DNA from: Gimesia benthica
GTDB taxonomy: Bacteria > Planctomycetota > Planctomycetia > Planctomycetales > Planctomycetaceae
Direction: 5' to 3'
Assembly (NCBI RefSeq): GCF_009720525.1
Contig: NZ_CP043930.1
Span: 5,116,501-5,180,500, forward strand
DNA: 64,000 bases
The notes beneath the pieces were generated by a model, which was not told the origin of the DNA, did not search any database, and was given only the letters and a program-made list of their open reading frames with translations. The position numbers and the translations under genes are program-made. Positions 39,374 to 55,800 of the stretch are shown here, piece by piece. The first letter of the stretch is position 1; every line of letters begins with the position of its first letter.

Positions 39374-40807
39374 TCATTTCTGCCTGAGAAAGCTCCGCTC
39401 TGTCGCAACCGGATCCGCATCATCCCACCGCTGCAGCCAGGTATGCAGTTCCCCTTTCAGCCGCTTCAACACCGGTGCCATTTCCGGCTTGTCGACGAGA
39501 TTCGCCAGCTCTTCCGGATCAGCCTGACGGTCATACAACGCCCATTCCGGACGATGATGCAGTCGCTGCACCAGTTTGTCCTGGGTCTGACGTTTCGTTT
39601 TTTGAGCTCTGCGGACCCACGAACCCGCGGTGTCTGCGCGGCCCTGTGAGTTACCGGCCTCAAGCCACTTAAGTGCCTGGGTGAGCGTAGTATTGGATGT
39701 GATCTCCTGGTCTGCACGCGGCGACCAGATCAGAGTATAGCGCTGGTCACGGATCGAACGGATCGGAAAAATCCGTTCCCGGTTATCAATGATGTTACAG
39801 TTGGTAAAGGCACCGTAGGCGTATTCATGCACCCTCTGATTGCCGCCTGTCAGGTTGACCCACTGACTGCGTCCATCAAAATCCTGATCGTCAGGCTGGC
39901 CTCCCGCAGCGGTGAGCAGCGTGGGGGCGATGTCTGCCAGCCACATCAGTTGGGAGTTGCGCTTCCCCTCCGGGATGACTCCAGGCAGCGAGACCACAAC
40001 GCCAGTTGCCAGCCCATCATCGAAACAGGTCCACTTGGAAAAAGGAAACGCATTCCCCTGCTCGGAACAGAACAGGACCAGCGTGTTGCTCGTAAGTTGT
40101 TCTTCTTTCAGTACGGTACGCAGCTGTCCCAGCAGATCATCCAGATTGGTGATCTCTGCGTAATGTTGGACCAGTTCTCTGCGATAGGCCCGCGTATCAA
40201 TGGTGTCGGCGTTGAGTGATAATCCCTGCTGATCATATCGGCTGGGGTCACCCGTTGTATAAGGGCCGTGCGCATCATGTGAGGCAACAACCAGGCAGAA
40301 CGGCTGACCCGCTTCGCGGGCGGTCGTCATGTACTCACGCGCCAGCTTGACCGCTTGGGGGTTCGCATTTTCCTGCTTGGACAAACTGCCGACATTGTCG
40401 AAGGGATAGCACTCGTTCGGACCGATGTGACGCTTCCCCAACAGGCCCACACGATAACCCAGCGGTTTCAGATAGTGCGGCAGACTCTTTGTCCCTTTGA
40501 CCGACTTGGAATGATTGGGCATCGCCCGCGTCCGCCAGACAGTGCGACCACTGTAGAGTTCCTGCCGGAAAGGAGCACACATCGCGACGTTGCAGTACAC
40601 GTTGTCCAGTCGCATGCCGTCCCGCGCGAGTTGATCGAGGTGCGGCGTCTGTGCCTGACCACCCCACGGACCCAGGGAATCGCGGTCGATGTCATCGCCC
40701 AGCAGGATCAGAATATTCGGCGGTGCTGCTTCAACGTCAGTTTCTGCAGACCAGGCACAGAACAGTAGCAGTACCAGAATTCCACTCACAACAGGAACGC
40801 GCATCAT
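39374..40807 (-). CDS. Exported sulfatase, second copy
   Basis: A 477-residue sulfatase; the ATG-ATG at 40807 gives the signal peptide (VVSGILVLLLFCAWSAE). Asp38-Asp39 in LILLGDDIDRD and Cys77 in MCAPFRQELYSG (a CxPxR motif) form the active site once Cys is converted to formylglycine. Later, CSEQGNAFPFSKWTC replaces the usual TSDHG region: the metal-binding Asp-Asn/His pair is altered to Glu-Gln. Heparan-sulfatase-like layout (SLPHYLKPLGYRVGLLGKRH). It shares a 131-base gap with the Gfo/Idh gene on the same strand. Confidence 0.88.
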   Translation of the reverse strand: MMRVPVVSGILVLLLFCAWSAETDVEAAPPNILILLGDDIDRDSLGPWGGQAQTPHLDQLARDGMRLDNVYCNVAMCAPFRQELYSGRTVWRTRAMPNHSKSVKGTKSLPHYLKPLGYRVGLLGKRHIGPNECYPFDNVGSLSKQENANPQAVKLAREYMTTAREAGQPFCLVVASHDAHGPYTTGDPSRYDQQGLSLNADTIDTRAYRRELVQHYAEITNLDDLLGQLRTVLKEEQLTSNTLVLFCSEQGNAFPFSKWTCFDDGLATGVVVSLPGVIPEGKRNSQLMWLADIAPTLLTAAGGQPDDQDFDGRSQWVNLTGGNQRVHEYAYGAFTNCNIIDNRERIFPIRSIRDQRYTLIWSPRADQEITSNTTLTQALKWLEAGNSQGRADTAGSWVRRAQKTKRQTQDKLVQRLHHRPEWALYDRQADPEELANLVDKPEMAPVLKRLKGELHTWLQRWDDADPVATERSFLRQK

Positions 40808-40938
40808 CGACCCACCCATGGCTTGAGAACATCTGGAGAAAGATCACCGTAATCCACAAAGCATCCACGGAAAGACGCTCGACCGGATCGCGCAGTGACG
40901 CACAACCCGGTCGAGTCTGTTCCCTGTATCCAGCTGGA

Positions 40939-42309
40939 TTACATGTTGATCTCATACCCCTTGCGGTTTTCGCGGGAGAGGAATGAGTTCGCCTGATCGT
41001 CGCCGATAATCTCGCGTTTCTTCGGATCCCAGTTCAGATCGCGACCGAGACGCATGGCGATATTCGAGAGATGGCAGATTTCCAGCATCCGGTTATGCGA
41101 CCAGACATCCGAAATCGGCTGCTTGCGGGATTTCATTCCCTCAATGAAGTTAGCGGTGTGGTTTTCACTCACTTTGCCGCCATACACAGCTTCAATCGCA
41201 CCGTCTGGCAGCGGATTGTCTTTCAACGCTTCAACGGGGGCACCCACAATCTTGCCCCGGTTGACGAAGAACCGGCCTTTGGTCCCTTCGAACAGAATGC
41301 CGTTATCACCTTCGCTGGTGATAATTATTTCCACATCTTCAGGCATGTCGACCTTGATACGAAAACTCGTGGCGGCATTGTACTGATCGTTGACGACGGG
41401 GTGACCATCTTTGTATTCCACAGGCAGTTCGTAACTGACGGGGGAAATCTTGCTGGGGCCGGTATCGGTGGCCCCCAGTGCCCAGCAGGCGATGTCGACG
41501 TGATGGGCACCCCAGTCGGTCAGCTTACCGCCGGAATACTCATGCCAGTTGCGGAATGAATAGTGACAGTTGCTGTAAAGCGGTACGCCTCCGCCGTAAC
41601 CTTCACGCATTTCAGGCAGAGCACGATAAGCCACTTTTGGAGCTGGTCCCAGCCAGAATTCATAATCCAGGCCTTCAGGAACTTCCGCTTCGGGAATTTT
41701 GGGAGACCCTTCCATGCCATTGATGCCACAGGTCACTTTCTGAACCTTGCCGATCCGACCATCGCGGATCAGGGCAATCGCCTGCAGGAACCGCTGTCCC
41801 GATTCGGATCGCTGCATGGTTCCCACTTGGAACACGCGACCGGTCTGCTTGACCATCTTTTCGATCAGCTTGCCTTCGTCGATGGTCAGCGTTAATGGTT
41901 TTTCGCAGTAAACGTCTTTGCCCGCCAGCATCGCTTCGACGGCGATTTTGGTATGCCAGTGATCGGGAGTCGCAATCATGACAGCATCAATATCCTGACG
42001 ATCGAGCACCTTGCGGTAATCTTTATAAGCGTCCGGTTTTTTATCCTGCTTCTTGACCAGCTTCTCAACGTTGGCACCCAGTACGTTTTCATCCACATCG
42101 GCCAGTGCCGCAAAGTCGGCGAACTTGGTTGATTTGTTGGTGATCGCCCAGCCCTGGTTGCGCAGACCAATGGTCGCAAACACCGGACGTTCGTTGGGGG
42201 ACTCATATCCCATGGCCCGATTGAGCGAAGGGCTCAGGATACCGGCAGCACCCGCAAAGGCGACTCCCTGGATAAAATTGCGGCGCGACATTTTTTGAGA
42301 AGTTGACAT
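40939..42309 (-). CDS. TAT-exported Gfo/Idh/MocA oxidoreductase
   Basis: A 456-residue NAD(P)-dependent sugar oxidoreductase family member. The start at 42309 follows AGAGGA. A twin-arginine signal (SRRNFIQGVAFAGAAGIL) shows it is exported with cofactor bound. The Rossmann domain carries IGLRNQGWAITNKS, then DAVMIATPDHWHTKIAVEAM and the family motif DVYCEKPL. The C-terminal domain has DWGAHHVDIACWALG, including the catalytic-site His. Substrates are usually sugars, inositols or glycosides. Planctomycetes hold many exported copies. Next to a sulfatase, it may handle sugars freed from sulfated glycans. Confidence 0.92.
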   Translation of the reverse strand: MSTSQKMSRRNFIQGVAFAGAAGILSPSLNRAMGYESPNERPVFATIGLRNQGWAITNKSTKFADFAALADVDENVLGANVEKLVKKQDKKPDAYKDYRKVLDRQDIDAVMIATPDHWHTKIAVEAMLAGKDVYCEKPLTLTIDEGKLIEKMVKQTGRVFQVGTMQRSESGQRFLQAIALIRDGRIGKVQKVTCGINGMEGSPKIPEAEVPEGLDYEFWLGPAPKVAYRALPEMREGYGGGVPLYSNCHYSFRNWHEYSGGKLTDWGAHHVDIACWALGATDTGPSKISPVSYELPVEYKDGHPVVNDQYNAATSFRIKVDMPEDVEIIITSEGDNGILFEGTKGRFFVNRGKIVGAPVEALKDNPLPDGAIEAVYGGKVSENHTANFIEGMKSRKQPISDVWSHNRMLEICHLSNIAMRLGRDLNWDPKKREIIGDDQANSFLSRENRKGYEINM

Positions 42310-42677
42310 TCAGTGAAATCCTCTTGGAGAAATTAAACGGAAATAGAAGTTCTGCAGATAAATACAGGCTCAAACTGTTCGCGTACGAGACGGAACAGGG
42401 ACCCTGTGGGGATCATAAATTGTAGCTGATGCCCTAACCTGAGTACACAGTAATCATTGTCTGACAGAAGTGAAGCCAGGTCCTGAAATCAACTTTGGAA
42501 CAGTCTATTCTGGATTCGGGCCACTCCCTCAGGAATATTCGAAGTACCATCATAGCTCGACGACTTTTCTAAAAAAACTTTCCAATTTCAATGCCAAGTT
42601 TTTATCATGAAAGACAGTGTACGACTGCTTATTTCTTCGTGATCGGGATCAGACCTCTCCTGACCGTGACAGTTAAA
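42310..42677. other. Divergent promoter region between Gfo/Idh and dienelactone hydrolase genes
   Basis: This 368-base gap separates two divergent genes. I see no gene and no strong hairpin. Promoters for both directions are expected here, but I could not fix a -35/-10 pair with confidence. Confidence 0.4.
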
Positions 42678-43589
42678 ATGAAAGACCCTTCCATGGAACG
42701 TAAATCCGCATCTGAATTCGATCAGAAAGTTCTGGACCTCTACGACGACTATGCCCACGGCCGACTCAATCGACGGGATTATATTAAACAACTCGGTGCC
42801 TTCGCTGTTGGAGGCCTGACAGTGGAAGGCCTGCTGGCCAGTCTCTCTCCCAACTACAGCTGGGCCGAACAGGTCAAGCCTGATGACCCACGCATTAAGA
42901 CCGAACGCATCACCTACGACTCCCCCGACGGAGCCGGCAAAATGAAGGGCCTGCTGGCCTGGCCCGCAAAGGGAGAAAAATTCCCCGCGGTCCTCGTGAT
43001 TCATGAAAACCGGGGCCTGAATCCCTACATCGAAGACGTGGCCCGCCGCCTCGCTGCACAGGGTTTTCTGGCACTGGCTCCCGACGCTTTAACGCCCCTG
43101 GGTGGTTATCCCGGTAACGATGACGAAGGCCGCACCATGCAGCGGAAACGGGAACCTGAAAAAATGAAGGAGGATTTCGTCGCAGCCGCGAAACTGCTCG
43201 ACAAACATGACAAGTCCACGGGCAAGGTCGGCGTGGTTGGTTTCTGCTTCGGTGGGGGCATGGTCTATCAGGTGGCTCTCGAACTTCCCGACGTCGTCGA
43301 TGCCGGCGTCCCCTACTATGGTCGTCAGCCCGATGCTGCCGAGGTTCCCAAACTCAAGACGCCCCTGCAGATTCACAACGCATCACTGGATCGACGCATC
43401 ATGGCTGGTGCTCCCGAACTGGAAGCCGCTCTGAAAAAGAACGACAAACCGTTCGAGGCCTATGTCTACGAAGGCGCGAATCACGGCTTCCATAACGACA
43501 CCACTCCCCGCTACGACGAGAAGTCCGCAGAACTCGCCTGGAAACGAACGATCGACTTCTTCAAGAAACAGCTCGGGGAACAGAGCTAA
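42678..43589 (+). CDS. Dienelactone hydrolase family protein
   Basis: A 303-residue alpha/beta hydrolase. The ATG at 42678 (or 42693) precedes a helical region that ends in a membrane or TAT-like stretch ([18 protein letters not shown]). The catalytic triad is readable: Cys190 in GFCFGGG, Asp238 in ASLDRRI and His269 in ANHGFHND. The conserved HENRG loop follows the first strand ([18 protein letters not shown]). These enzymes open lactones and related esters. The reading frame extends upstream to 42591 without conserved features. Confidence 0.88.
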
Positions 43590-43623
43590 GTAAAACTCGG
43601 CGACCAATGAAGGTGCAGCGTTT

Positions 43624-44148
43624 GTGAGACGGATTACTCTGAATCGCCCCAACAGGAAACTGAGAGGGGTACGGCGTCATTTACGAAGCCTGACGAAGTG
43701 GGCAGATCTGATTCATTTTGAAAATGATCTTCGACCGGGGGAGAAGTATGTTAACTTCAAAGTCCCACTCCCCGCTGCACTGGTCGAAGGGCCGCGGTCG
43801 CGACATCGTCTACAGGCAGACGTGATTTCACAGTTACTGCGGGCAGCCGAGAAACTGGCCAGGCAACAACCACCTGAGAATAGCCAATTCTACCGGGTGG
43901 CAGTCCTGTTGACTTTGCCTAACCTGTTTGCAAGTGAAGTCACTCTGTTTTTTGATGAAGACTATTTCCACGGATTCCTCTACGAGAACAGTCTCCCCGA
44001 CTCGCAGCGCCCCAGTCAGCTCTATGCAGTTAAGATTCCGGAGATATTTGATATCGAGTGTGGCTGCCTGGTCTCATACACGGATGACGAGTATGTCTAT
44101 CGCAGCCATCATTGGACGATTACTGCTTCAACCCCACATCAGATCTGA
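43624..44148 (+). CDS. DUF3916-like protein
   Basis: A 174-residue soluble protein starting with GTG at 43624. The middle (RVAVLLTLPNLFASEVTLFF then DEDYFHGFLYEN) matches the core pattern of DUF3916, a small family with conserved strands and a YFxGF motif. The basic N-terminus (RKLRGVRRHLRSL) also fits the family opening. Function unknown. It lies 34 bases after the hydrolase gene and 67 before the next unknown gene, so it may be in one transcript with both. DUF3916 members sometimes occur near secreted-toxin islands; nothing of that kind is seen here. Confidence 0.6.
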   Translation: MRRITLNRPNRKLRGVRRHLRSLTKWADLIHFENDLRPGEKYVNFKVPLPAALVEGPRSRHRLQADVISQLLRAAEKLARQQPPENSQFYRVAVLLTLPNLFASEVTLFFDEDYFHGFLYENSLPDSQRPSQLYAVKIPEIFDIECGCLVSYTDDEYVYRSHHWTITASTPHQI

Positions 44149-44215
44149 ATTCTTTTTTGCCAGTAGTTGACCAGGCTGTTCATCCAGTCGTAGCGAAAGT
44201 ATCGAAGAGCCCGTG

Positions 44216-44698
44216 ATGCATCGATTTTATCACATCGAAGAAGTTGACGGCGTTTTCGAAACGGTGTTACCACCCTTCGATCACACAGCCTGGCCAGATA
44301 TTGTGCCGGAACAGGGATACGTCTGGATCAGTAACCCCGGCCTCGAAATCGCAGGGAAATTGGATTCCATCCTCTCCCAGGCACTTTTTCAGACAGACGC
44401 GATCGACTTAAGAAGTGCCATTCATCGGCTGGAATTCGATGTCTCAATTCCCGCCGCTGATTTTTTACACTTTGCCGAATCGAAGTTCACTCAGGGCATC
44501 GATTTCATCCTCAGTGAAAAACATCAACCTGCGGAATTTCAATGGTCCTTCCTGCCCCGGCACAGCTGGCCAGACATCTTGGCACAGAACCAGATCACCC
44601 TTGTCTTTCACAGGCCAGCCGGTGGAGAACCTTCAAAAATCATCTCGCCATTTGGGGACATATTGAAAAAGATCATCGACCGGATTTCCAGTCGATGA
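44216..44698 (+). CDS. Unknown soluble protein
   Basis: A 160-residue protein starting ATG at 44216 (a GTG one codon earlier is less likely). It has no signal peptide or membrane helix. Visible features are aromatic segments (FYHIEEVDGVF, GYVWISNPGLEIAGKL) and a C-terminal amphipathic helix (FGDILKKIIDRISS). I recognise no family. It follows the DUF3916-like gene by 67 bases and ends before the convergent RND-methyltransferase gene. Confidence 0.5.
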   Translation: MHRFYHIEEVDGVFETVLPPFDHTAWPDIVPEQGYVWISNPGLEIAGKLDSILSQALFQTDAIDLRSAIHRLEFDVSIPAADFLHFAESKFTQGIDFILSEKHQPAEFQWSFLPRHSWPDILAQNQITLVFHRPAGGEPSKIISPFGDILKKIIDRISSR

Positions 44699-44789
44699 TC
44701 GATAGGTTTGCCTCAACTCAATGTAATCGCGATGATTCCAGCTTATGTGTCGCAACCAATAGCGTGACTCAAGTGGCTTGATCGGCCAC

Positions 44790-47700
44790 TTAAACCCGCT
44801 GAGTCACAGCAAACAACGCGTGCGGTCCCCCTTCCGAGAAGTGGGTGTCCGCGTCTTCCCGCGTGACGAAACGACAGTCAACGATCAACTGCACCTGCCA
44901 GCCCTCCTGGAAGGTGTTACGCAGTTCTTCGCTGCTCACGCGTCGCGGTCCTTCGCCGGCAGGCTCCTTGTCGCTGAAGCACTGCAGATAAAGCGTCGCC
45001 CCCGGTTCCATCACCTGGGCCAGTTCACTCAGGTAACGCACACGATCTTCATTCGAGAGAATGTGGAAGAATCCACAGTCAAGTACATTGTCAAACAGCT
45101 GATTCAACTCTGAAAGCTGCAATGCGTTCTGTTGCAGGAACGTTGCCCGCAGGCCCCGTTCGGTTGCCTTACGATTGGCTTCCGCAATTGGGTCTGCCAG
45201 CAGATCAATACCGGTCACTTCGCAATCCTGAGCTGCGAAGAACAGCGCATTCTCTCCCGTACCACAGCCGACGTCCAGCACGCTGCCCCGGATCCGGTCC
45301 GCCACATTTACAAACTCCGGCTGCGGTTCACCAATGTCCCAGGGAGGTCTCTCTTCCGCGTACATCTGTTCGAAGTTCTCAGCGGGAGTGGTCTCTCGGT
45401 CAACCGGACCAGGGGAAGTGGAGTCGGAACTGTTCGCATTAGACTGGCTGCGGGAAACATGTTCGTCGGACGGTAACATCGCATTGGACTCCTGGTTCAA
45501 AACAGCAGTATCCCCACCGGCCACTGCAGGCTTACGGGAGAACCGCCGCAGCACCACGTAGAAGACCGGGGTCAGGAACAGACCAAACAGGGTAACTCCC
45601 AGCATACCACTGAAGACCGCGGTCCCCAATACCCGTCGCATTTCAAAACCGGCACCAGTGGCGATGAGCAACGGAATCACACCCAGAATGAAGGAGAACG
45701 CCGTCATCAGAATCGGCCGCAGTCGTAAGCGACAGGCCGCGACAGCGGCTTCAAACCGGTCCTTACCCGCATCTTCTTCCGCCTTGGCGAATTCCACGAT
45801 CAGAATCGCATTCTTACAGGCCAGACCCACGAGTACGATGAATCCGATCTGCGTCAGAATGTTATTGTCCATGCCACGGAACCAGATACCCATGATGCCG
45901 AACAGCAGACACAAAGGCACAATCAGAATGATGGCCAGTGGCAACAGCCAGCTTTCGTACTGGGCTGACAGCGTGAGGAATACAAACAGCACCGCCAGCG
46001 GGAACAGGAATACAATCGTATTTCCTGCCTGCCGTTCCTGGAATGCGAGTTCAGTCCACGCATAACCAAATCCAGGCGGGAGACTCTGTTCCGCCAGCTG
46101 TTCCATCGTTGTCAGCGACTGTCCCGTACTGAAACCCGGTACGGTATCACCATTCAGGTCAGCGGCAGGGAACAGGTTGTACCGCACCAGGCGGTCCGGT
46201 CCCGCGGTTCGCTTCAACTGCACCACCGAACCCAGCGGGATGCTCGTTCCCCGGGCACTGCGGGTGCGCAGGCGGAGAATGTCACTCGGTTCGTCACGGA
46301 ACTCAGGTTCCGCCTGTGCCGTTACGCGATACGTACGCCCCAGGAAGTTAAAGTCATTCACGTACACCGAGCCCAGGTAGACTTCCAGCGCATCGAAAAC
46401 GTTGTTAATCGGAATATCGAGCATCTGTGCCTTGGTCCGGTCCACCTCCGCATAAATCTGAGGCACGCTCGTCCGGAAGTTTGAATAGACCTGCACCAGC
46501 CCGGGCTGTTGATTGGCTTCCGCCACCATTCGCTCGGTGACCTGGTTGAGGGCTGCCACGCCGGCGCCACTCTGGTCCTGCACGTACATTTTATATCCGC
46601 CACCACGACCGATCCCACGGACCGGGGGCGGGGGAATGATGAAGATCTGCGCTTCATTGATTGAAGAGACCTCACGCCGCAGGTCCCCGATAATCGCATC
46701 CAGGTTCCGTCCCCGCTTGGCCCGCTCCTTGGCATCTTCCAGCGGGAGGAACGTCACCGCGGCGTTGGGACTGATCGTAAACGTCGATCCCGACAAGCCG
46801 GCAATCCCGACGGAATGTGCGACACCATCGATCTCACTCCCGATTTGCGCAACCTGTCTGGTAACCACATCGGTTCGCGACAGCGAAGCACCGTCGGGCA
46901 GCCGGATACTGACAATCAGATATCCCTGGTCCTGGGCAGGGATGAATCCTGACGGGACCATACCAAAGCTGTACCAGGTCGCCACCAACAGGCCGCCATA
47001 CAGTATCAGCGAGAGTGCCGACACACGAATGATTCGGGAAATGAAGCCCGCATAAACGTTTCCTGTGAAGTCAAAAAAGCGATTGAACCCTCGGAAAAAC
47101 CAGCCGAAGAAGAAGTCGACGAATTTCCCCATCTTATTCCGTTCAGCATTCTTCGGCTTGAGCAGCAACGCACACAGAGCCGGGCTCAAGGTCAGCGACA
47201 CGAATGTTGAAAACGCGGTCGAGATGGCAATCGTCATCGCGAACTGTCTATAAAAGCGACCACTCATGCTCGGTACGAACATGGTCGGCACGAACACGGC
47301 AATCAGCACCAGGGTTGTCGCGATCAGCGCAGAGCCGACCTCGTCCATCGCTTTATGTGTGGCTTCGCGCGGCGAATAACCATCGCCGATCAGACGTTCC
47401 ACGTTCTCCACCACCACGATGGCATCATCCACCACAATCCCGATCGCGAGCACCAGCCCGAACAGCGAGAGCGTATTCAACGAAACGCCCAGCACCTGCA
47501 TCGCGGCAAATGTTCCGATCAACGAAATGGGAATCGCGATCACGGGAATGATCGTCGGTCGCCAGCCGTGCAGGAACAGGAACACGGTCAGCACCACCAG
47601 CGCAGTTGTGATATAGAGAGTTTCAAACACCTCCGCGATGGACTCTTCTACGTAGTCGGTCGGGTTGTATGCAATCTCGTAGCCTACCCCTTCAGGGAAG

Positions 47701-48656
47701 TCCTTATTCAGATTGGCCATGGTCTGCTTCACTTCGGCTGCAGCATCCACCGCATTCGTACCGGGCCGCTGATAAATCAGAATCGCCACCGCCGGCTTTC
47801 CGTCCAGATAACTGATACGCGAATAATCCTGGGCTCCCAGTTCAATCCGGGCCACATCATTCAGACGCGTCACGCGACCATCATCGCCCCGTTTCACGAT
47901 GATATCGCCGAACTCGCTCTCTTCGCGCAGACGTCCCTGGGTGGTGACGTTCAATTGAAAGTCACCAGAGGCATCAATGGGAGGCTGACCAATCACACCA
48001 GCCGCCACCTGTGCATTCTGTTGACGGATCTCCGAAACGATGTCGCCCACGGTCAGACCCACGTGCGTCATCTTCTCAATATCGAGCCAGATGCGCATTG
48101 AGTATTCGTTACCACCGGCGACACGAATATCCCCCACACCATCCAGACGCATCAACGCGTCGCGAATGCGCAGGAAGGCGAAGTTACTGATATAAAGCTG
48201 ATCCCGGCTATTATCAGGTGAGTTCAAGTGGACCACCATCAGCATATCGGGAATCTGTTTGCGAGTGGTCACACCAATCTGGCGCACCGCTTCAGGCAGA
48301 CGCGCTTCTGCAACCGCGACCCGGTTCTGTACCAGCACCTGCGCGTCATCGAGGTTGGTTCCCAGCTGAAACGTGACGGTCAGCTGCATGGTACCGTCAC
48401 TACTCGAGGACGATTCCATATACAGCATGTTGTCCACGCCGTTCATTTCCTGTTCGATCGGCGTCGCCACCGTATCCGCGATCACCTGGGGCGTCGCACC
48501 GGGATAACTGGCGCGAACCACAATCGTCGGCGGTGCCACATCGGGATACTGGGAGACCGGCAATGAGAAGTACGCCAGACCTCCTACCAGAACCACGATG
48601 AAGGAGAGCACCGACGCAAAAATGGGGCGTTCAATAAAGAAATGGGGGAACTTCAT
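44790..48656 (-). CDS. RND multidrug pump fused to a SAM-dependent methyltransferase
   Basis: A 1288-residue protein. The ATG at 48656 overlaps the adaptor stop (ATGA) and starts the family sequence MKFPHFFIERPIFASVLSF. Residues 1 to about 1040 are a complete AcrB/HAE1-type RND pump: PVSQYPDVAPPTIVV, the proton relay GIVVDDAIVVVENVERL, twelve membrane helices and a final FGLFLTPVFYVVLRRF. A Ser/Asn/Asp-rich linker (about 1041-1092) leads to a class I methyltransferase of about 195 residues: FEQMYAEERPPWDIGEPQPE (about 1095-1114), the SAM-binding VLDVGCGTGENALFFA (from 1126) and the acidic loop VTGIDLLAD. AcrB proteins normally end near 1040. The tail is predicted to lie in the cytoplasm, next to the pump's inner face. 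Confidence 0.92.
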   Translation of the reverse strand: MKFPHFFIERPIFASVLSFIVVLVGGLAYFSLPVSQYPDVAPPTIVVRASYPGATPQVIADTVATPIEQEMNGVDNMLYMESSSSSDGTMQLTVTFQLGTNLDDAQVLVQNRVAVAEARLPEAVRQIGVTTRKQIPDMLMVVHLNSPDNSRDQLYISNFAFLRIRDALMRLDGVGDIRVAGGNEYSMRIWLDIEKMTHVGLTVGDIVSEIRQQNAQVAAGVIGQPPIDASGDFQLNVTTQGRLREESEFGDIIVKRGDDGRVTRLNDVARIELGAQDYSRISYLDGKPAVAILIYQRPGTNAVDAAAEVKQTMANLNKDFPEGVGYEIAYNPTDYVEESIAEVFETLYITTALVVLTVFLFLHGWRPTIIPVIAIPISLIGTFAAMQVLGVSLNTLSLFGLVLAIGIVVDDAIVVVENVERLIGDGYSPREATHKAMDEVGSALIATTLVLIAVFVPTMFVPSMSGRFYRQFAMTIAISTAFSTFVSLTLSPALCALLLKPKNAERNKMGKFVDFFFGWFFRGFNRFFDFTGNVYAGFISRIIRVSALSLILYGGLLVATWYSFGMVPSGFIPAQDQGYLIVSIRLPDGASLSRTDVVTRQVAQIGSEIDGVAHSVGIAGLSGSTFTISPNAAVTFLPLEDAKERAKRGRNLDAIIGDLRREVSSINEAQIFIIPPPPVRGIGRGGGYKMYVQDQSGAGVAALNQVTERMVAEANQQPGLVQVYSNFRTSVPQIYAEVDRTKAQMLDIPINNVFDALEVYLGSVYVNDFNFLGRTYRVTAQAEPEFRDEPSDILRLRTRSARGTSIPLGSVVQLKRTAGPDRLVRYNLFPAADLNGDTVPGFSTGQSLTTMEQLAEQSLPPGFGYAWTELAFQERQAGNTIVFLFPLAVLFVFLTLSAQYESWLLPLAIILIVPLCLLFGIMGIWFRGMDNNILTQIGFIVLVGLACKNAILIVEFAKAEEDAGKDRFEAAVAACRLRLRPILMTAFSFILGVIPLLIATGAGFEMRRVLGTAVFSGMLGVTLFGLFLTPVFYVVLRRFSRKPAVAGGDTAVLNQESNAMLPSDEHVSRSQSNANSSDSTSPGPVDRETTPAENFEQMYAEERPPWDIGEPQPEFVNVADRIRGSVLDVGCGTGENALFFAAQDCEVTGIDLLADPIAEANRKATERGLRATFLQQNALQLSELNQLFDNVLDCGFFHILSNEDRVRYLSELAQVMEPGATLYLQCFSDKEPAGEGPRRVSSEELRNTFQEGWQVQLIVDCRFVTREDADTHFSEGGPHALFAVTQRV

Positions 48657-50053
48657 GGATTGTTCCTCGGCTTTCCAAACAATGAACTGACCTTGGGTGC
48701 CGGCTTCGTCGGCAGGGGATCGGGTTCGGGTGAGATCCATTGCTCAGGCGGCAAGGGGCTGTAATCGTTGGGCAGGCCATCTTCGACGACTTCAATTTTC
48801 CCGGGTTTCACCTGGACCTCCATCTCCGGACGTACCAGCAGCAGACCGGCGATGATGAGCTGCTCATCCCCTTTCAGTCCCTCGCGGACCACGCGCAATC
48901 CATCCACGATTGGCCCCGGTTGAATCACGCGCTGCTCGACTTTGCCATCCACCACCACATACACAAACTGTGATGACTGATCGGTACCCACTGCAGAGTC
49001 GGGAATCAGGATCGCATTGTAAGCGGCACTTCCCGGAATCCGGATCCGGGCAAACATCCCCGGCAACAGAGTCCCGTTTTTATTCGGGAAAATAGAACGT
49101 GCCCGCATGCTGGCGGTATCCACATCAAACCGGTTGTCTACAAAGTCCATGTGTCCCTGGTGAGGAAAACCTTTCTCATCCACCAGTCCGAGGAAGACTG
49201 GGTTTTTAGCCACACGGGAACTGGCACGTTTGCCGTTCTGAGCCAGTCGGGTGTATTTCAAAACTTCCTGCTCGGTGGCATCAAAGTTACAGTAGATCGG
49301 TGCGACTGAAGTGATCGTCGTCAGCATCGTCGAAGTGGAAGTACCTCCGCTGACGAGGTTTCCCTCCGTGACATGTTTCTTACTGATGCGTCCCGTGATG
49401 GGCGCATAGATTCGGGTGTAGTCCAGATTCAGTTCGGCTGTCTCAACTTGTGCTTTCGAAGCTTCGATGACTGCCAGTGCGGTTTCAATGGACGCCTTTG
49501 CAGAACTGATGCCTGCCTGGCTCGCTTCCACATTCGCCTTCGCTTGCAGAAAAGCCGCTTCCAGCTGATCGAGTTCATCCTGCGTCGTCACGTTCTTGGA
49601 TTTAAGCGAGCGCGCCCGCTTGACCTGGGCAAAGGCCAGTTCCAGTTGCGCCTGTGTCTGCTCCTTCTGGGCATTCGCTTCTTCCAGTTGTGCGCGTGCC
49701 TGCACGAGTTGCGAATTCGACTGACTGAGCGTCGCTTTAGCAAGACTCAGCTCCGCTTCGAAAGGGCGGGGATCAATCACGAACAGCAACTCGCCTTCAT
49801 TGACCATCTGCCCTTCGTCAAAGTGGGTTGATTTCAGGTAACCGCTGACCCGCGCCCGCACTTCGACAAAGTCGATTGCTTCCAGTCGACCGGTGTAAGC
49901 GTCCCATTCCACAATCTGCTTGACGACCGGCTTGGCAGTCGTCACAGTGGGGGCCACTTTCTGGGGTGGGGCAGTCTGGGCTTCGTTGCATCCCGACAGG
50001 CTGACACACAGTCCGCCCAACAGGACCAGGGATATACTCGTGAAATACTTCAT
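48653..50053 (-). CDS. RND efflux adaptor lipoprotein (AcrA-like)
   Basis: A 466-residue membrane fusion protein with a lipobox (LCVSLSGCNEA, Cys near residue 22). Family order: barrel-sandwich half (YTGRLEAIDFVEVRARVSGY), a long helical hairpin with Glu/Ala heptads (about 95-215), the second half (LNLDYTRIYAPITGRI) and the beta-barrel/membrane-proximal region (NGTLLPGMFARIRI). It carries substrate from the RND-methyltransferase fusion protein to an outer-membrane channel. The stop overlaps the pump start by four bases. No TolC-like gene is adjacent. Confidence 0.93.
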   Translation of the reverse strand: MKYFTSISLVLLGGLCVSLSGCNEAQTAPPQKVAPTVTTAKPVVKQIVEWDAYTGRLEAIDFVEVRARVSGYLKSTHFDEGQMVNEGELLFVIDPRPFEAELSLAKATLSQSNSQLVQARAQLEEANAQKEQTQAQLELAFAQVKRARSLKSKNVTTQDELDQLEAAFLQAKANVEASQAGISSAKASIETALAVIEASKAQVETAELNLDYTRIYAPITGRISKKHVTEGNLVSGGTSTSTMLTTITSVAPIYCNFDATEQEVLKYTRLAQNGKRASSRVAKNPVFLGLVDEKGFPHQGHMDFVDNRFDVDTASMRARSIFPNKNGTLLPGMFARIRIPGSAAYNAILIPDSAVGTDQSSQFVYVVVDGKVEQRVIQPGPIVDGLRVVREGLKGDEQLIIAGLLLVRPEMEVQVKPGKIEVVEDGLPNDYSPLPPEQWISPEPDPLPTKPAPKVSSLFGKPRNNP

Positions 50054-50176
50054 TGAACCCGCCGATGTTTAATTGACTCTGAAGGAAGGCAGTTTTCGGA
50101 AAAGAGATGCTGGCTTTCGGAGCGCCCTGTTTTCCGAGGTGGTGCACACTTACGACGATAATCGGTAAGCCTGGCT

Positions 50177-50198
50177 AATAGTTTATGCGAAAACTATT
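50177..50198. promoter_or_regulatory. Inverted repeat upstream of the AcrA-like gene
   Basis: AATAGTTT (50177-50184) and its exact complement AAACTATT (50191-50198) flank six bases. It lies 124 bases upstream of the adaptor start, in a 354-base gap that otherwise shows no gene. The AAACTA half-site also occurs in the palindrome at 51067-51090, which could mean the same TetR protein binds both. Confidence 0.45.
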
Positions 50199-50407
50199 CA
50201 CATGAAGTTTATGCGGGATGTCGAAATGAGGCAATTGCAGAATTCAGATTTTTCAACAGAAAATCGGGAGGCCCGTTCTTCCTAACTGCAGGAAGCTATT
50301 CAGGATGTGACTGTCCAGAATGTTTGTCCTGGACACTTGGTTTTAGACCCTTGGCAGAGAGTTCGTCGGGGAGCTGTGACCCTGAGACCATCGTTTCTGG
50401 AGCGTTT

Positions 50408-51028
50408 TCAGCAGGAATACTGAGCCAGAAACATGCTGACCGTCGACTCGACAAGCTGTTTCTTCTGTACTTCCGTCAGTGGCGCTTCCTTGCCGATCAG
50501 CGGGGGCCAGAAGGCGAAGGATTGAATCAGTCCCAGGAACTGCTTCGCCGCCAGTTGGGCATCAGGAATCTGCAGGTTACCCTCCTGATGCGCTGTTTCC
50601 AGCCAGACGATCAACCCGGCCTCAAACTGGGTCGAATCAATCATCATCTCACGAGCCAGGTCCGGCGACTGCAAAAATCGCGAAAGCGTAACCCGGGCCA
50701 GGTCCTGAAATTCGGGGGAAGCCATCAGATCGACGGCCGTCTGACCAATGTCGCTCAACTGCGTGGCAATGGGTTCACCGGGAGTATAGTCAGAGACTTC
50801 GATCAGCTGACAGCGCGACATCAGTTCATCCACAATCGCAGCAAACAGATCTTCTTTACTGGGAAAATGATTGTAAACCGTTCTCTTGGAAACAGATGCG
50901 ACTTCCGCAATCCGGTCCATACTGGTGTTGTCGAAACCGTTCTGCTTCAACTCCGAAACGGCGGCCTCCATAATTGCGGCCCGTTTCCGGTCTGTCAGTC
51001 TTCCCTTGTTTGCCGATTTTGACGTCAT
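50408..51028 (-). CDS. TetR/AcrR-family transcriptional regulator
   Basis: A 206-residue repressor. The N-terminal helix-turn-helix reads AAIMEAAVSELKQNGFDNTS, then MDRIAEVASVSKRTVYNHFP, the classic TetR DNA-binding motif. The C-terminal helical domain (about 80-200) should bind a small hydrophobic ligand, probably a pump substrate. It sits between two RND systems: the AcrA-like gene 354 bases downstream on the same strand and a divergent adaptor gene on the other. A near-perfect palindrome lies 39 bases in front of its start, so self-control and control of the divergent operon are likely. Confidence 0.93.
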   Translation of the reverse strand: MTSKSANKGRLTDRKRAAIMEAAVSELKQNGFDNTSMDRIAEVASVSKRTVYNHFPSKEDLFAAIVDELMSRCQLIEVSDYTPGEPIATQLSDIGQTAVDLMASPEFQDLARVTLSRFLQSPDLAREMMIDSTQFEAGLIVWLETAHQEGNLQIPDAQLAAKQFLGLIQSFAFWPPLIGKEAPLTEVQKKQLVESTVSMFLAQYSC

Positions 51029-51066
51029 AAAAAAAGTACACTTTGCGGTTTACATACTTCGATAAA

Positions 51067-51090
51067 AAACTACACTACCCGGTGTAGTTT
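51067..51090. promoter_or_regulatory. Palindromic operator between tetR-like and second RND operon
   Basis: AAACTACAC (51067-51075) and GTGTAGTTT (51082-51090) are exact complements around six bases, a 24-base palindrome of the size TetR-family repressors use. It lies between the TetR start (51028) and the divergent adaptor start (51132), where it could block both promoters. Confidence 0.65.
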
Positions 51091-51131
51091 ACTTGCGCTT
51101 CTACCCAATTCCCATAGCGACCACGGAAATT

Positions 51132-52838
51132 ATGAACGTTCCCTGCTCGGTTCTGCTGATAGCAGTAGCCATCTTATCAACAGCCTGTGATTCATCCAGT
51201 CAAATCGATTCAAAACCCAAAGCCCCCCGGCCGGTCTCAATTTTTATGCTCCACGAGATGACCCCGGTTTCCCATTCACTCGTCACTGGATCGGTGGGTG
51301 CCTGGAAGACCGAGAAAATCGGGTTCGAAATTTCGGGACGCGTCGAAAGTGTGCTGGAGCCCGAAACCGAAATCGAAGGCCGCGTGCTTGACCAGGGGAG
51401 TGGCAAAGTGCTGGTGCCGGGCACCGTCCTGGCTCGATTGCACGACGAACGGTACCGCATTGCCGTCGATTCCGCCCGGGCTGCCGTCGATGTCGCCCTG
51501 CAAAGAAAAAAAGCGATGCAGGTGGAAATCGCCGAAGGTCTTCCCGCCCGACTCGCTTCAGCCCAGGCGGAACAGCAACTGGCTAAAGCCGAGTCGCAGC
51601 GCACGGTGACCCTGGTCAGCAAAAAAGTCGCCACCCGTTCCGATTACGATCGGGCGATGGCCGAACTGCAGACCACAAACGCCACGGTCAAGAATCTCGA
51701 AGCAGAACTGAAAACCAAACAGGCGGAACTCAGTTCCCAGGATGCAGAGATCGAAAAAGCCCGCTTTCAACTCGCTGAAGCCGAACGCAATTTACGCGAC
51801 ACCGTCCTCTACTCCTCCTTTCGCGGACAGGTCGCTCAGGTACACGCGGTTCCGGGCAGCTACCTCGATGCCGGTGATCCGGCTTTAACCATTCAGATCA
51901 TGGATCCCATCAAAGTCGAGCTGGAACTCTCGGCAAACATGTCGCGGCGTTTTCATCGAGGCGATATTGTGCGGGTCATCGCCGAAAACAGCCAGGGACA
52001 GCAGACCGGGCTCGAAGGCTATGTCTATATGACCGACCCCAATGCGGATGCGGAGACCAGAACCTTCACCGTTACCCTGCTTGTGCGCAATCGGAAATCG
52101 CAACTCAAAATTCCCCGCGGCTATCCGACTGAGAACATCGCCCGTACGAAAGATATCTGGCCTTTGAATTTTGCTCCGATTGTCAGCGGCGGTAACGCGC
52201 TCATGACTGAAGAAAAAGCGATCAGACGAGATGCGAATGGTGCTTTTCTCTGGAAGATTACGAACCGCAGGGCAGGCGAAATCACCTCGTCTGGCAATCG
52301 CGTCTTGAACGTCGAAAAAGTCCGTATCACGCCCGGTACGATTCGGGTTCCTTTCCTGGGAAACTGGTACTTCGTCCCAGTGGAAATTCAGCCAGGACAG
52401 AACTTTGATCCGCAACGTGATCTGGTGGCTGGGGAACTCAAGGTCAGCCAGGGGCAGCCAGACAACTGGAACGGACGCCACATACTCCTCGACGAATCAA
52501 GCTGGCTGCTCAGGCCCGGCGATGTCGTCCGTGTCGGTCTCGATCAGGGAGCGACCACACCCGGACTCTACGTGCCCATGAAAGCCATCCGCCAGCAGGC
52601 CGGCAAAACTTCAATTTTCATAGTTGACGACGCGACTGAGCAGACCATGGCCCGTGAAGTCGAAATCGTCCTTTCGGAAAGCAGCTTCCCTTCCTCGCGG
52701 GAAATGATGTTACGGCAGATCAGACCGGCCCCCGGAGTGAAGCTGCCCCCGAAAGCGAGAGTCATTCTGGAGGGCATGCCCTTCCTCAGCGATGGCGAAC
52801 CGGTGACAGTCGTCGGGAAACCGGAGGCCGTCCAATGA
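51132..52838 (+). CDS. RND efflux adaptor lipoprotein, extended type
   Basis: A 568-residue membrane fusion protein. The ATG at 51132 gives a signal peptide with a lipobox (AILSTACDS); an earlier TTG at 51093 is not needed. Family parts are the barrel-sandwich (IGFEISGRVESVLEP), a helical hairpin (about 115-225), the return strand region (LYSSFRGQVAQVHAVPGSYL) and a C-terminal beta-barrel. It is about 150 residues longer than common adaptors, because of inserted loops in the membrane-proximal half (about 345-450, near GYPTENIARTKDIWP). It pairs with the pump that overlaps its stop by four bases (ATGA). Likely controlled by the adjacent TetR protein. Confidence 0.88.
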   Translation: MNVPCSVLLIAVAILSTACDSSSQIDSKPKAPRPVSIFMLHEMTPVSHSLVTGSVGAWKTEKIGFEISGRVESVLEPETEIEGRVLDQGSGKVLVPGTVLARLHDERYRIAVDSARAAVDVALQRKKAMQVEIAEGLPARLASAQAEQQLAKAESQRTVTLVSKKVATRSDYDRAMAELQTTNATVKNLEAELKTKQAELSSQDAEIEKARFQLAEAERNLRDTVLYSSFRGQVAQVHAVPGSYLDAGDPALTIQIMDPIKVELELSANMSRRFHRGDIVRVIAENSQGQQTGLEGYVYMTDPNADAETRTFTVTLLVRNRKSQLKIPRGYPTENIARTKDIWPLNFAPIVSGGNALMTEEKAIRRDANGAFLWKITNRRAGEITSSGNRVLNVEKVRITPGTIRVPFLGNWYFVPVEIQPGQNFDPQRDLVAGELKVSQGQPDNWNGRHILLDESSWLLRPGDVVRVGLDQGATTPGLYVPMKAIRQQAGKTSIFIVDDATEQTMAREVEIVLSESSFPSSREMMLRQIRPAPGVKLPPKARVILEGMPFLSDGEPVTVVGKPEAVQ

Positions 52839-55800
52839 ACATTCTCCCTGAATTTGCCATCCGATACCGAACGATTGTTTTTACCATCGTCGGTCTGCTG
52901 GTCATCTGGGGCATAGTCTCCTTTCAGACCATGCCCCGCCGTGAAGACCCTGAATTTACCATCATGACCTGCGTCGTTACGACTCCCTGGCCGGGCGTCT
53001 CGGCGGAAAAAGTCGAAGAGTTGATTACCGATCCTCTCGAAGAGGTCCTGGATGGCATCGAAGAGGTAGACGTTCTGCGTTCGACTTCCATCAACGGCCT
53101 GTCGACGATCTTTGTCGATCTGTACGACAACGTCTCCCCTGCGCACGTCGATCAGGTTTGGGATCAGGTACGCGCCCGTGTCCGAAACGTGGAGATGCCC
53201 GAGGAAAATATCACCCCGATTGTTACCGACGACTTCGGCGACACAAGCGTAATCCTCTTTGCCATCTATCAGAAACCGTTGCCGGGCCGGACAGAGATCG
53301 ACCCGCATCGCATTTATACGGACCGCGACCTGGATCTCTATTCAGAACGCGTTCGCGATGCCCTCCGCCTGCTCGACGGCGTCGCCAAAGTCCAGCGATT
53401 CGGTGTTCGGGAAGAAGCGATTTATATCGAGACCGATGCCGGCACCTGGTCGCATCTGCAACTCACCACCGGCGACCTCAAAGATCTGATTTCCGACCGC
53501 AACATTATTGAAGCAGGGGGCCTGCTCGATACCGGCGATGGACGTTTTTATGTCAAACCGGGCGGGAAACTCGACGTCGTGAATGAAATCAACACGATCG
53601 TCGCTGATCTCTCCAGTTCGGACAAAGGTTCCAACCAGGTGTATCTGGATGACCTGGGGCTGAATGTCAGACGTGCTTACCAGGATCCCCCCTCGCTCAT
53701 CTGCCGCTACAGCGATCCAGAGACTTCGCAGTCTGCGGTGATTGTCGCGGTCACCATGAAATCGGGGTCGAATATCATCGATATCTGTAATGCCTCCAAA
53801 GCCCGCCTGGAGGAAATGCAGAATCTGACCTATGAACTTCCGCCAGATCTCGGACTCGTTCCCATCTCCGATCAGTCCGAAAGTGTGAATAACCGGATTC
53901 ATGACGTGATCATCAATGTCATTGAAGCGGTGTTCATTGTGGTCGTGGTCGTCTACCTGGTCGTCGGCTTTCGCACCGCCACCGTCATGGCTGCTAACAT
54001 TCCCTTTGTCACCCTGATTGCCGTCGGCGTCATCACGCTTTTCGGAGTCCAACTCGAGCAGATGTCGCTGGCCTCCATGATTATCTCACTCGGTCTGCTT
54101 GTGGATAACGCGGTGCAGATCTGTGATCAGTCGCGCACCAATCAGATCGAAGGCATGGGACCGATTGAAGCCAGCGTCAGCGGAGCCCGCATGTTGGCGG
54201 CTCCCATGCTGAATGGAACCCTTACCACTATCGCCTCCTTCGTGCCGATGGTCATCTTTTTTGAAGGGGGCAACCGCGAGTTTATTTACAGTCTCCCGGT
54301 CACTCTCTCCGTGATGCTGGCCGTCAGCTGGGTTCTGGCGATGACCTTCTGTGTGATTCTGGCGGCCATGTTTATTCGCCCGCCCAAATCCAAAGATCAA
54401 CCCAGTGCGCCCCTGGTCCGCTGCTTCTACTGGTTCAAAGGCCTCTTTCGCCGCAAACGGGCTGCCGACGAATTCTCCTGGAAATCGGAGAACCAGCATT
54501 ACATCAGCCGGGTCTACGGGGTACTCGTCTCACAGGCCATAAAACATAAATTCCTCACGCTGGGCGTTTCCATCGGTCTCTTTTTCCTGGCACTTAAACT
54601 GCCGGTCAGCACCGAGTTCTTCCCCCAGGGAGAACGGGACCAGTTTGTCGTCGGCGTCTGGTTGCCGGAAAACGTGAGCATCGAACAGACCAATCAGGCC
54701 GCCAGGCAGGTTGAAGAACTGCTCTGTAAACTGAGCCCGACCACCAACGAAGCCGGCAACCAGGTCGAACGCCTGCGGGCCATGCGCACCCTGGTCGGAG
54801 GCGGCGGCTCCCGCTGGTATCTTTCCTGGAATCCCGAATCCCGGAAAGCCAACTACGCCGAGATCCTGATTCGAACCTCCGATCCGAAACTCACACACGA
54901 CTTTGCCCAGCAGGTGCGTCAGGTCGCACTCACCGGCGATGCGGACTTGGGCATCGATCCGCTTCCCGGCATCCGCGTCGTCCCCATGGAGATGATGCTC
55001 GGACCACCGGCGGCCCCGGTCGCTCTGCGAATCACTGGAAATGGCTTCGCAGATCTGCATAAACTCCGCGAGGTCGCCGGCCAGGTGGAGAAGCTGATCC
55101 GCGATCAGCCCGAGACCTGGAACACGCACGATTCCTGGGGCGCCGACGGCTACCAGCTGCAGGTCAACGTGGATGCCGACCGCGCCAGTCTGGCAGGAGT
55201 CAGTAATGCCCAGATCGCCTCGACCCTGAATACCTACTATTCGGGAAAACAGCTGACCATGTTCCGCGAAGGGGACTATTCGGTCCCCGTCTATTTCCGC
55301 CTGATTCCCGAGGGACGCAAATCAGTGTCGACTATCGAATCTGCTTACATCGAAGGTCGTAACGGCAAGGTTCCCATCAAATCGGTCGCGGCTTTCGAGT
55401 ATGGTTGGGAACCCGCGGTCATCGAACGCCGCGATATGAACCGCACCATCGAAGTCTCTGCCCGAGTCGAACCCGGTGCCTCCGGGAACGATATCGTGAG
55501 CCGGATCATGTCCTCAGATGAATTCAAACAGATCGAAGCGAATCTGCCCAACGGGTTCCGTATCGAGATTGGCGGTGCACTCGAAGAATCGATGCAGGCT
55601 TCCGGCATGATGCTTAAAGCCTTCGGCATGTCTTTTGTAACCATCCTGCTCCTGCTGGTCATTCAGTTTAACAGCATCTCGAAGTCGATCATGATCATCT
55701 TCACGCTTCCCCTGGCATTGATCGGGGCCTTGCTCGGTCTGTATCTCACCAGTAATCCCCTGGGCTTCATGCCTCAGCTGGGGATTCTGTCCCTGTTCGG

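What the first reader, a model, noticed from the sequence alone, without database searches (positions are those of the whole stretch)
44790..48656. RND pump fused in frame to a SAM methyltransferase
A complete AcrB-like pump (to about residue 1040) continues through a flexible linker into a class I methyltransferase with PPWDIGEPQP and VLDVGCGTGE. The frame has no break. The enzyme would sit at the cytoplasmic mouth of the pump and could methylate a compound before export, for example a phenol, thiol or metalloid. I know no described RND-methyltransferase fusion.
Basis: partly seen in the sequence, partly recalled or inferred. Interest (0 to 1): 0.8.

Follow-up and report, generated by a model that had tools for sequence, protein, structure and literature searches.

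The report
Drug-type efflux pump fused to methyltransferase
In a few related planctomycete bacteria a multidrug-type efflux pump carries, as one continuous protein, an enzyme that probably methylates small toxic molecules, which suggests a single machine that both modifies and expels poisons.

Summary
The fusion is real. Window 44790-48656 (-) is one open frame of 1288 residues: a full AcrB/MexF-type RND permease (1-1040), a 53-residue linker and a class I SAM methyltransferase (1094-1288). It is no assembly artefact: the in-frame fusion occurs in 5 of 17 genomes of the genus, in a genome of another genus (apparently one gene split over two contigs) and in a separate planctomycete MAG. The enzyme is under purifying selection (dN/dS 0.04-0.12) and keeps its SAM motif and catalytic-type histidine. 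The seven fused enzymes form one group (support 100/97); the seven pumps do not. So the enzyme tail moved between pump genes, or was lost many times. The nearest characterised enzymes of solved structure are Ecm18 and the toxin-methylating Rv0560c. Seven of 44 loci of other planctomycete relatives link the family to HxlR/old-yellow-enzyme genes or a GyrI-like small-molecule-binding domain. Best reading: a xenobiotic-methylating enzyme tethered to the cytoplasmic face of a multidrug pump. Substrate and coupling are untested; a metalloid substrate is not supported. New variant of a known kind.

The parts
44790..48656 (-). fused gene: RND permease + linker + class I SAM methyltransferase, 1288 aa
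45537..48656 (-). RND (AcrB/MexF/OqxB-like, HAE-1) permease part, residues 1-1040
   Evidence: Pfam ACR_tran 5-1036; NCBIfam RND_permease_1 1343 bits, above cut-off 1250
45378..45536 (-). variable polar linker, residues 1041-1093
   Evidence: 20-89% identity to the other fused genes measured, while the domains are better kept; dN/dS 0.13-0.63 in the 6 of 10 same-genus pairs of equal length
44793..45377 (-). methyltransferase domain, residues 1094-1288
   Evidence: Methyltransf_25, TPMT and others; nearest PDB chains 6mro, 8gdu, 4nec (Ecm18), 7bgg (Rv0560c)
45252..45281 (-). SAM-binding motif I VLDVGCGTGE, residues 1126-1135
   Evidence: L1127, D1128, G1130, C1131, G1132, T1133 and G1134 kept in all 7 fused sequences
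45063..45065 (-). His1198, probable active-site histidine, in all 51 sequences aligned
   Evidence: aligns with a histidine of 4nec that is probably Ecm18 His115 (paper passage; residue match inferred)
45477..45493 (-). possible internal start: AGGAG (45489-45493), nine bases, then ATG (45479-45477), Met1060; a free 229-aa methyltransferase could also be made
   Evidence: a five-base SD word lies upstream of 2 of 277 internal in-frame ATGs in the window (this one counted) and of 9 of 28 first ATGs of long ORFs; AGGAG and ATG are kept in all 5 same-genus fusions; no such word seen by eye before the linker Met codons of L078 or G452
48653..50053 (-). periplasmic adaptor (MFP, MexE/OqxA-like), overlaps the fused gene by 4 bases
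   Evidence: TIGR01730 236.5 bits, cut-off 94.9
50408..51028 (-). TetR-family (AefR-like) regulator upstream of the adaptor, same strand
   Evidence: PF00440 and PF14246; matched beside the pump in G012, G004 and G008, not in the 17 kb of G009 nor in the 7 unfused loci compared

Best explanation
A genuine bifunctional protein. The N-terminal RND permease works with the adjacent adaptor as a proton-driven multidrug-type exporter. The C-terminal tail is a small-molecule SAM methyltransferase of the Rv0560c/Ecm18-like group, held by a flexible linker at the cytoplasmic face of the inner membrane, three copies per pump trimer (trimer and topology recalled). The likeliest job is two-layer defence against the same toxic organic compounds (quinones, hydroxylated heterocycles or thiols): what enters the cytoplasm is methylated, which masks a reactive or charged group, and the more lipophilic product partitions into the membrane, where the pump takes it up and exports it. 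Shown: the fusion, its conservation, the intact catalytic-type residues and purifying selection. Inferred: substrate class, cytoplasmic placement, and coupling between methylation and export.
For: In-frame fusion in 7 assemblies from three lineages. Methyltransferase dN/dS 0.04-0.12 over 10 pairs. 44 of 58 positions conserved in the 44 non-RND-fused relatives are kept in all 7 fused enzymes, including SAM-motif residues and His1198. Among its nearest PDB relatives the ones whose action is known to me or named act on organic small molecules: Ecm18 (4nec) and the heterocyclic-toxin methyltransferase Rv0560c (7bgg). Rv0560c methylates an inhibitor of a M. tuberculosis enzyme and lowers its effect (PMC6652808, passages). 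Of 44 loci of non-RND-fused relatives (39 genomes), 3 have an HxlR-type gene and old-yellow-enzyme-like sequence nearby, 3 are in-frame fusions to a GyrI-like domain and a fourth holds a remnant of it. The permease is above cut-off for a multidrug efflux RND family.
Against: No substrate is known. AcrB-type pumps take substrates from the periplasm or outer leaflet (recalled), so a cytoplasmic enzyme has no obvious direct hand-over. Of the 18 pump rows at 76% identity or more in the pump comparison, 12 lack the tail and end in their own stop, so the pump does not need it. 37 of the 44 loci of other relatives show none of the neighbours looked for. 14 of 58 conserved positions differ in at least one fused enzyme. 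No usable structure model.
Confidence: 0.5

Rival explanations
1. The two parts are merely tethered. The methyltransferase does its own work (detoxification, methylation of an endogenous quinone or signal) and gains only co-expression or membrane location; export and methylation do not share substrates.
For: The linker is variable and fast-evolving; close relatives of the pump lack the tail; most related enzymes found stand alone.
Against: All three lineages put the same enzyme group on the same kind of pump, which is unexpected if the partner did not matter.
Confidence: 0.33
2. Dual product: besides the fusion, a free 229-residue methyltransferase is translated from the internal AGGAG-N9-ATG at 45479, and this soluble form does the work.
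For: Only 2 of 277 internal in-frame ATGs in the window, this one counted, have a five-base SD word upstream; AGGAG and ATG are kept in all five same-genus fusions.
Against: Found after looking at this site; no SD word seen at the linker Met codons of L078 or G452; CAG GAG is also ordinary coding sequence; weaker four-base words precede 22 of 277 internal ATGs.
Confidence: 0.15
3. Assembly or sequencing artefact joining two genes.
For: None found.
Against: Separate assemblies of other species, G012 and G009 in contigs of whole-genome size, keep the frame across a diverged linker, including a 15-base length difference.
Confidence: 0.01
4. Metalloid (tellurite, arsenite) methylation and export.
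For: Weak Pfam TehB match (25.2 bits; cut-off 20.4), below five or more other methyltransferase families in the same scan.
Against: NCBIfam TehB models 28-35 bits against cut-offs of about 218-303; two arsenite-methyltransferase models 31-34 against 510-575; permease CusA/CzcA heavy-metal model 360 against 701.
Confidence: 0.03

Closest known systems
MexEF/OqxAB-type HAE-1 RND multidrug pumps
   Same: Full permease, adaptor gene just upstream; NCBIfam RND_permease_1 and TIGR00915 above cut-off.
   Different: Below the OqxB, OqxA and MexE cut-offs; carries an enzyme at the C-terminus; no outer-membrane factor among the 9 ORFs of 39374-56203 scanned with Pfam.
Rv0560c heterocyclic toxin methyltransferase (M. 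tuberculosis; 7bgg)
   Same: Same sequence group (3e-23 with one sequence, 1.5e-30 by profile), PPW-IGEPQ motif and the aligned histidine.
   Different: Stand-alone chain of 245 residues; the substrate of the window's enzyme is unknown.
Ecm18 (echinomycin thioacetal-forming methyltransferase; 4nec)
   Same: PPWDIG-PQP motif, SAM motif and the aligned histidine; 4nec = Ecm18 from the paper passage.
   Different: Biosynthetic enzyme; the match breaks into two pieces towards its C-terminus; not fused to a pump.
Free-standing and GyrI-fused planctomycete relatives of the domain
   Same: Same family, up to 57% identity among those measured.
   Different: Read as stand-alone proteins of about 200 residues, or fused to a GyrI-like domain; outside the RND-fused group in the tree.

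Membership tests
HAE-1 RND multidrug efflux permease | Full-length ACR_tran domain above curated cut-off | tested here: met
   1120 bits, residues 5-1036; NF000282 1343 >= 1250; TIGR00915 1152 >= 940
HAE-1 RND multidrug efflux permease | Adaptor (MFP) gene beside it on the same strand | tested here: met
   48653-50053 (-), TIGR01730 236.5 >= 94.9
HAE-1 RND multidrug efflux permease | Drug export measured | not testable with these tools
   needs bench work
OqxB or MexEF equivalog | Score above the exception/equivalog cut-off | tested here: not met
   OqxB 1172 < 2200; MexE 330 < 714; OqxA 299 < 835
Class I SAM-dependent methyltransferase | Methyltransferase domain above cut-off, with motif I | tested here: met
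   Methyltransf_25 69.9 >= 27; motif VLDVGCGTGE
Rv0560c/Ecm18-like small-molecule methyltransferase | Sequence relation and shared active-site histidine | tested here: met
   identity of the histidine with Ecm18 His115 rests on an assumed 20-residue tag in the 4nec chain
Rv0560c/Ecm18-like small-molecule methyltransferase | Methylation of a heterocyclic or sulfur substrate | not testable with these tools
   needs assay
TehB tellurite or ArsM arsenite methyltransferase | Score above NCBIfam cut-off | tested here: not met
   TehB 28-35 bits against 218-303; two ArsM selenoprotein models 31-34 against 510-575

The most novel reading that the evidence does not exclude
A modify-and-export machine: a multidrug RND pump with a built-in detoxifying methyltransferase whose product is the pump's preferred cargo. 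The enzyme tail is a portable module that moved laterally between RND pump genes of planctomycetes. It would be the first described RND pump with a fused drug-modifying enzyme, as far as the paper searches show.
Probability: 0.35. Interest if true: 0.8.

Novelty: new variant of a known kind. Interest (0 to 1): 0.62.

Why it matters
Bacteria resist toxic compounds by pumping them out or by modifying them, usually with separate proteins. A conserved single protein that joins both would make it directly testable whether modification and efflux act on the same molecule in series. It also bears on how an enzyme on the cytoplasmic side can feed a pump thought to load from the outer side of the inner membrane. 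It also marks an otherwise unassigned methyltransferase family, found in 67 of 397 class genomes, as a likely xenobiotic-handling family.

Tried and rejected
Artefact: rejected by the conserved frame in other species. Metalloid methylation: NCBIfam models far below cut-off. An adjacent-gene intermediate (pump and free methyltransferase side by side): in the 46 methyltransferase loci examined, RND matches fell only in the two fused ones, L078 and L096; flanks are about 3 kb, less where a contig ends. A hidden fourth fusion in G032, whose match ran to query residue 1104 near a contig end: checked, its pump ends in its own stop after a long low-complexity tail. Junction-near recombination in the pump: L078's pump is nearest the G001/G002/G034/G006 subgroup over residues 450-900; in the last 75 residues the gap closes or turns slightly (window's genus 72-75%, subgroup 69-72%), but unfused G007 scores as high as fused G009, so this is no clear switch. 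In that call the short G452 C-terminal piece was misaligned and not used. Long frame of G023 (1621 aa): open sequence upstream of the pump, no second fused domain seen in what the locus holds. Structure model: mean pLDDT 45 from a two-row alignment, not used; no fold search run. Rfam: nothing at gathering score in the window. Plasmids: 108 records with relatives, all under 60% identity; of the 20 listed, 18 are annotated as class I methyltransferases, one as a thiopurine methyltransferase and one has no feature. Phages: one weak match. H2S/methanethiol methyltransferase papers gave no link. Papers: no RND-methyltransferase fusion found (186 papers, listing of 15 seen; 0 papers; 0 papers).

Limits of the counts: of the 67 class genomes with a relative, 42 were carried into the domain comparison, with G472, G474 and G487 and L078; the other 25 were judged from the open-frame column alone, which would miss a fusion cut by a contig end. 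The 44 loci of non-RND-fused relatives come from 39 genomes. The pump tree has 30 rows taken from the loci returned, not all RND matches, and uses residues 298-941. Both trees used LG+G4 without the mixture model. In the neighbour search the old-yellow-enzyme matches of L140 and L151 are at 30% identity to a piece from L142; only L142 was checked with Pfam, and only L151 for HxlR.
Full report
Observation. Window 44790-48656 (-) is one uninterrupted frame of 1288 residues. Residues 5-1036 match ACR_tran with 1120 bits, and the C-terminus matches several class I methyltransferase families, Methyltransf_25 best (69.9 bits, cut-off 27). The permease passes the cut-offs of RND_permease_1 and TIGR00915, not that of OqxB; the upstream adaptor overlaps it by four bases and passes TIGR01730, not MexE or OqxA. 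A TetR-type gene lies upstream on the same strand. The genome is a single contig of 8.03 Mb.

Not an artefact. Of 59 genomes searched (the window's own included), 5 carry the fusion over the full length, all in the window's genus, which has 17 genomes in the set: G000, G012, G004 and G008 (99% identity) and G009 (94%). The linker differs between them (68-89% identity to the window, 5 codons longer in G009) with the frame kept. Five other genomes of the genus (G016, G007, G005, G011, G014) hold the pump at 88-90% (89-91% by tblastn) without the tail, each ending in its own stop. The other seven of the genus showed no pump match above 67% in the listed rows. Two further lineages have the fusion: Planctomycetales MAG HKST-UBA30 (L078; pump 62% over 739 aligned residues, enzyme 62%, linker 20%) and G452 of another genus. 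In G452, contig C3 ends inside the pump (residues 1-941, 83%) and contig C224 starts inside it and runs into the enzyme. That these two pieces are one gene is an inference from the matching ends.

Selection. Among the five same-genus genes dN/dS is 0.007-0.021 for the pump and 0.04-0.12 for the enzyme (10 pairs each). It is 0.13-0.63 for the linker (6 pairs of equal length). The enzyme is thus maintained, though it changes faster than the pump. Of 58 columns conserved in at least 93% of 44 non-RND-fused relatives, 44 are kept in all seven fused enzymes, among them SAM-motif residues and a histidine (1198) present in all 51 sequences; 14 differ in at least one fused sequence.

Where the enzyme comes from. 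In the order, 16 of 170 genomes have a relative at E <= 1e-30. In the class sample, 67 of 397 have one at E <= 1e-45. In the phylum sample, 6 of 392 have one at E <= 1e-30. Outside the window's genus the open frames listed are 117-496 residues, and those read out look like stand-alone proteins of about 200 residues, apart from the fusions named here. In the enzyme tree the seven RND-fused domains form one group (support 100/97; unrooted); the order of the three lineages within it is not settled (G452 next to the same-genus five is not rejected, p 0.22). In the pump tree the seven fused pumps do not group: holding them together costs 168 log-likelihood units (p-AU 2e-70), and holding the same-genus five with G452 costs 29 (p 0.0007). 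Of the 18 pump rows at 76% identity or more, 12 are without the tail. Either the enzyme tail moved between pump genes, or an old fusion was lost many times; I favour movement because fewer events are needed, but this is not proven. Within the genus, fused loci lie in a different local order from unfused ones: the GFO gene lies upstream and divergent in the five unfused loci of the genus and downstream in the five fused ones, as after an inversion (with the window's own ORFs).

What the enzyme does. The best PDB matches are 6mro from Methanosarcina acetivorans and the very similar 8gdu, which carry no function in their names, then 4nec and 7bgg. 4nec is Ecm18, thought to methylate a disulfide sulfur, with His115 placed to act as base (PMC10491745, passages). 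The window's His1198 aligns with residue 135 of the 4nec chain, which is His115 if the chain has a 20-residue tag (inference). 7bgg is Rv0560c, named in the PDB as heterocyclic toxin and 2-heptyl-1-hydroxyquinolin-4(1H)-one methyltransferase; Rv0560c methylates the inhibitor TPSA and lowers its effect (PMC6652808, passages). Among 44 loci of non-RND-fused relatives, three have an HxlR-type gene and old-yellow-enzyme-like sequence within about 3 kb. Three are in-frame fusions with a GyrI-like domain (one of them with an internal deletion in the enzyme), and a fourth keeps a remnant; 37 of 44 show neither. The Pfam match of the GyrI-like domain is marginal (26.3 bits, cut-off 26). Taken together this points to organic xenobiotics or electrophiles, not metalloids; it is suggestive, not proof.

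Mechanism. RND permeases of this kind have both ends in the cytoplasm and form trimers (recalled), so the enzyme would sit at the cytoplasmic face, where SAM is. Since such pumps load from the periplasm and outer leaflet (recalled), I think direct hand-over through a cytoplasmic mouth unlikely. Methylation would rather make cytoplasmic toxicants more lipophilic, so that they enter the membrane and are caught by the pump. This coupling is inferred. A simple tether is nearly as likely. An internal start at Met1060 could also release a free enzyme: AGGAG lies nine bases before the ATG, and a five-base word of this kind precedes 2 of 277 internal in-frame ATGs (this one counted) but 9 of 28 first ATGs in the window. 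The word is kept in all five same-genus genes but not seen in the two other lineages.

Novelty. Three paper searches found no description of an RND-methyltransferase fusion; one search returned 186 papers, of which only the listing of 15 was seen, the other two returned none, and the library holds open-licence papers only. Each half belongs to a known family; the joined architecture is, as far as I could see, undescribed.

Noticed in passing
L129, L150, L097 (G703, G472, G436): The same methyltransferase family is fused in frame behind a GyrI-like domain in other planctomycetes; in L097 the methyltransferase has an internal deletion.
   Followed up: partly
L140, L142, L151: Free-standing relatives near an HxlR-type gene and one or two old-yellow-enzyme-like sequences; Pfam-checked for L142 (old yellow enzyme) and L151 (HxlR) only.
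   Followed up: partly
L151:4840-5277: One short frame matches both HxlR (31 bits) and TspO/MBR (62 bits), a possible regulator-TspO fusion or frame artefact.
   Followed up: no
window 51093-56203 (+): A second RND pump with its own adaptor lies divergently next to the TetR gene, so two pump gene pairs flank one regulator.
   Followed up: no
window 45477-45493 (-): Strong Shine-Dalgarno-like word and ATG inside the linker, kept in five genomes of the genus.
   Followed up: partly
window 40939-51028 and L067-L075: Pump locus is rearranged between fused and unfused species of the genus, as if the pump segment were inverted relative to the GFO gene.
   Followed up: partly
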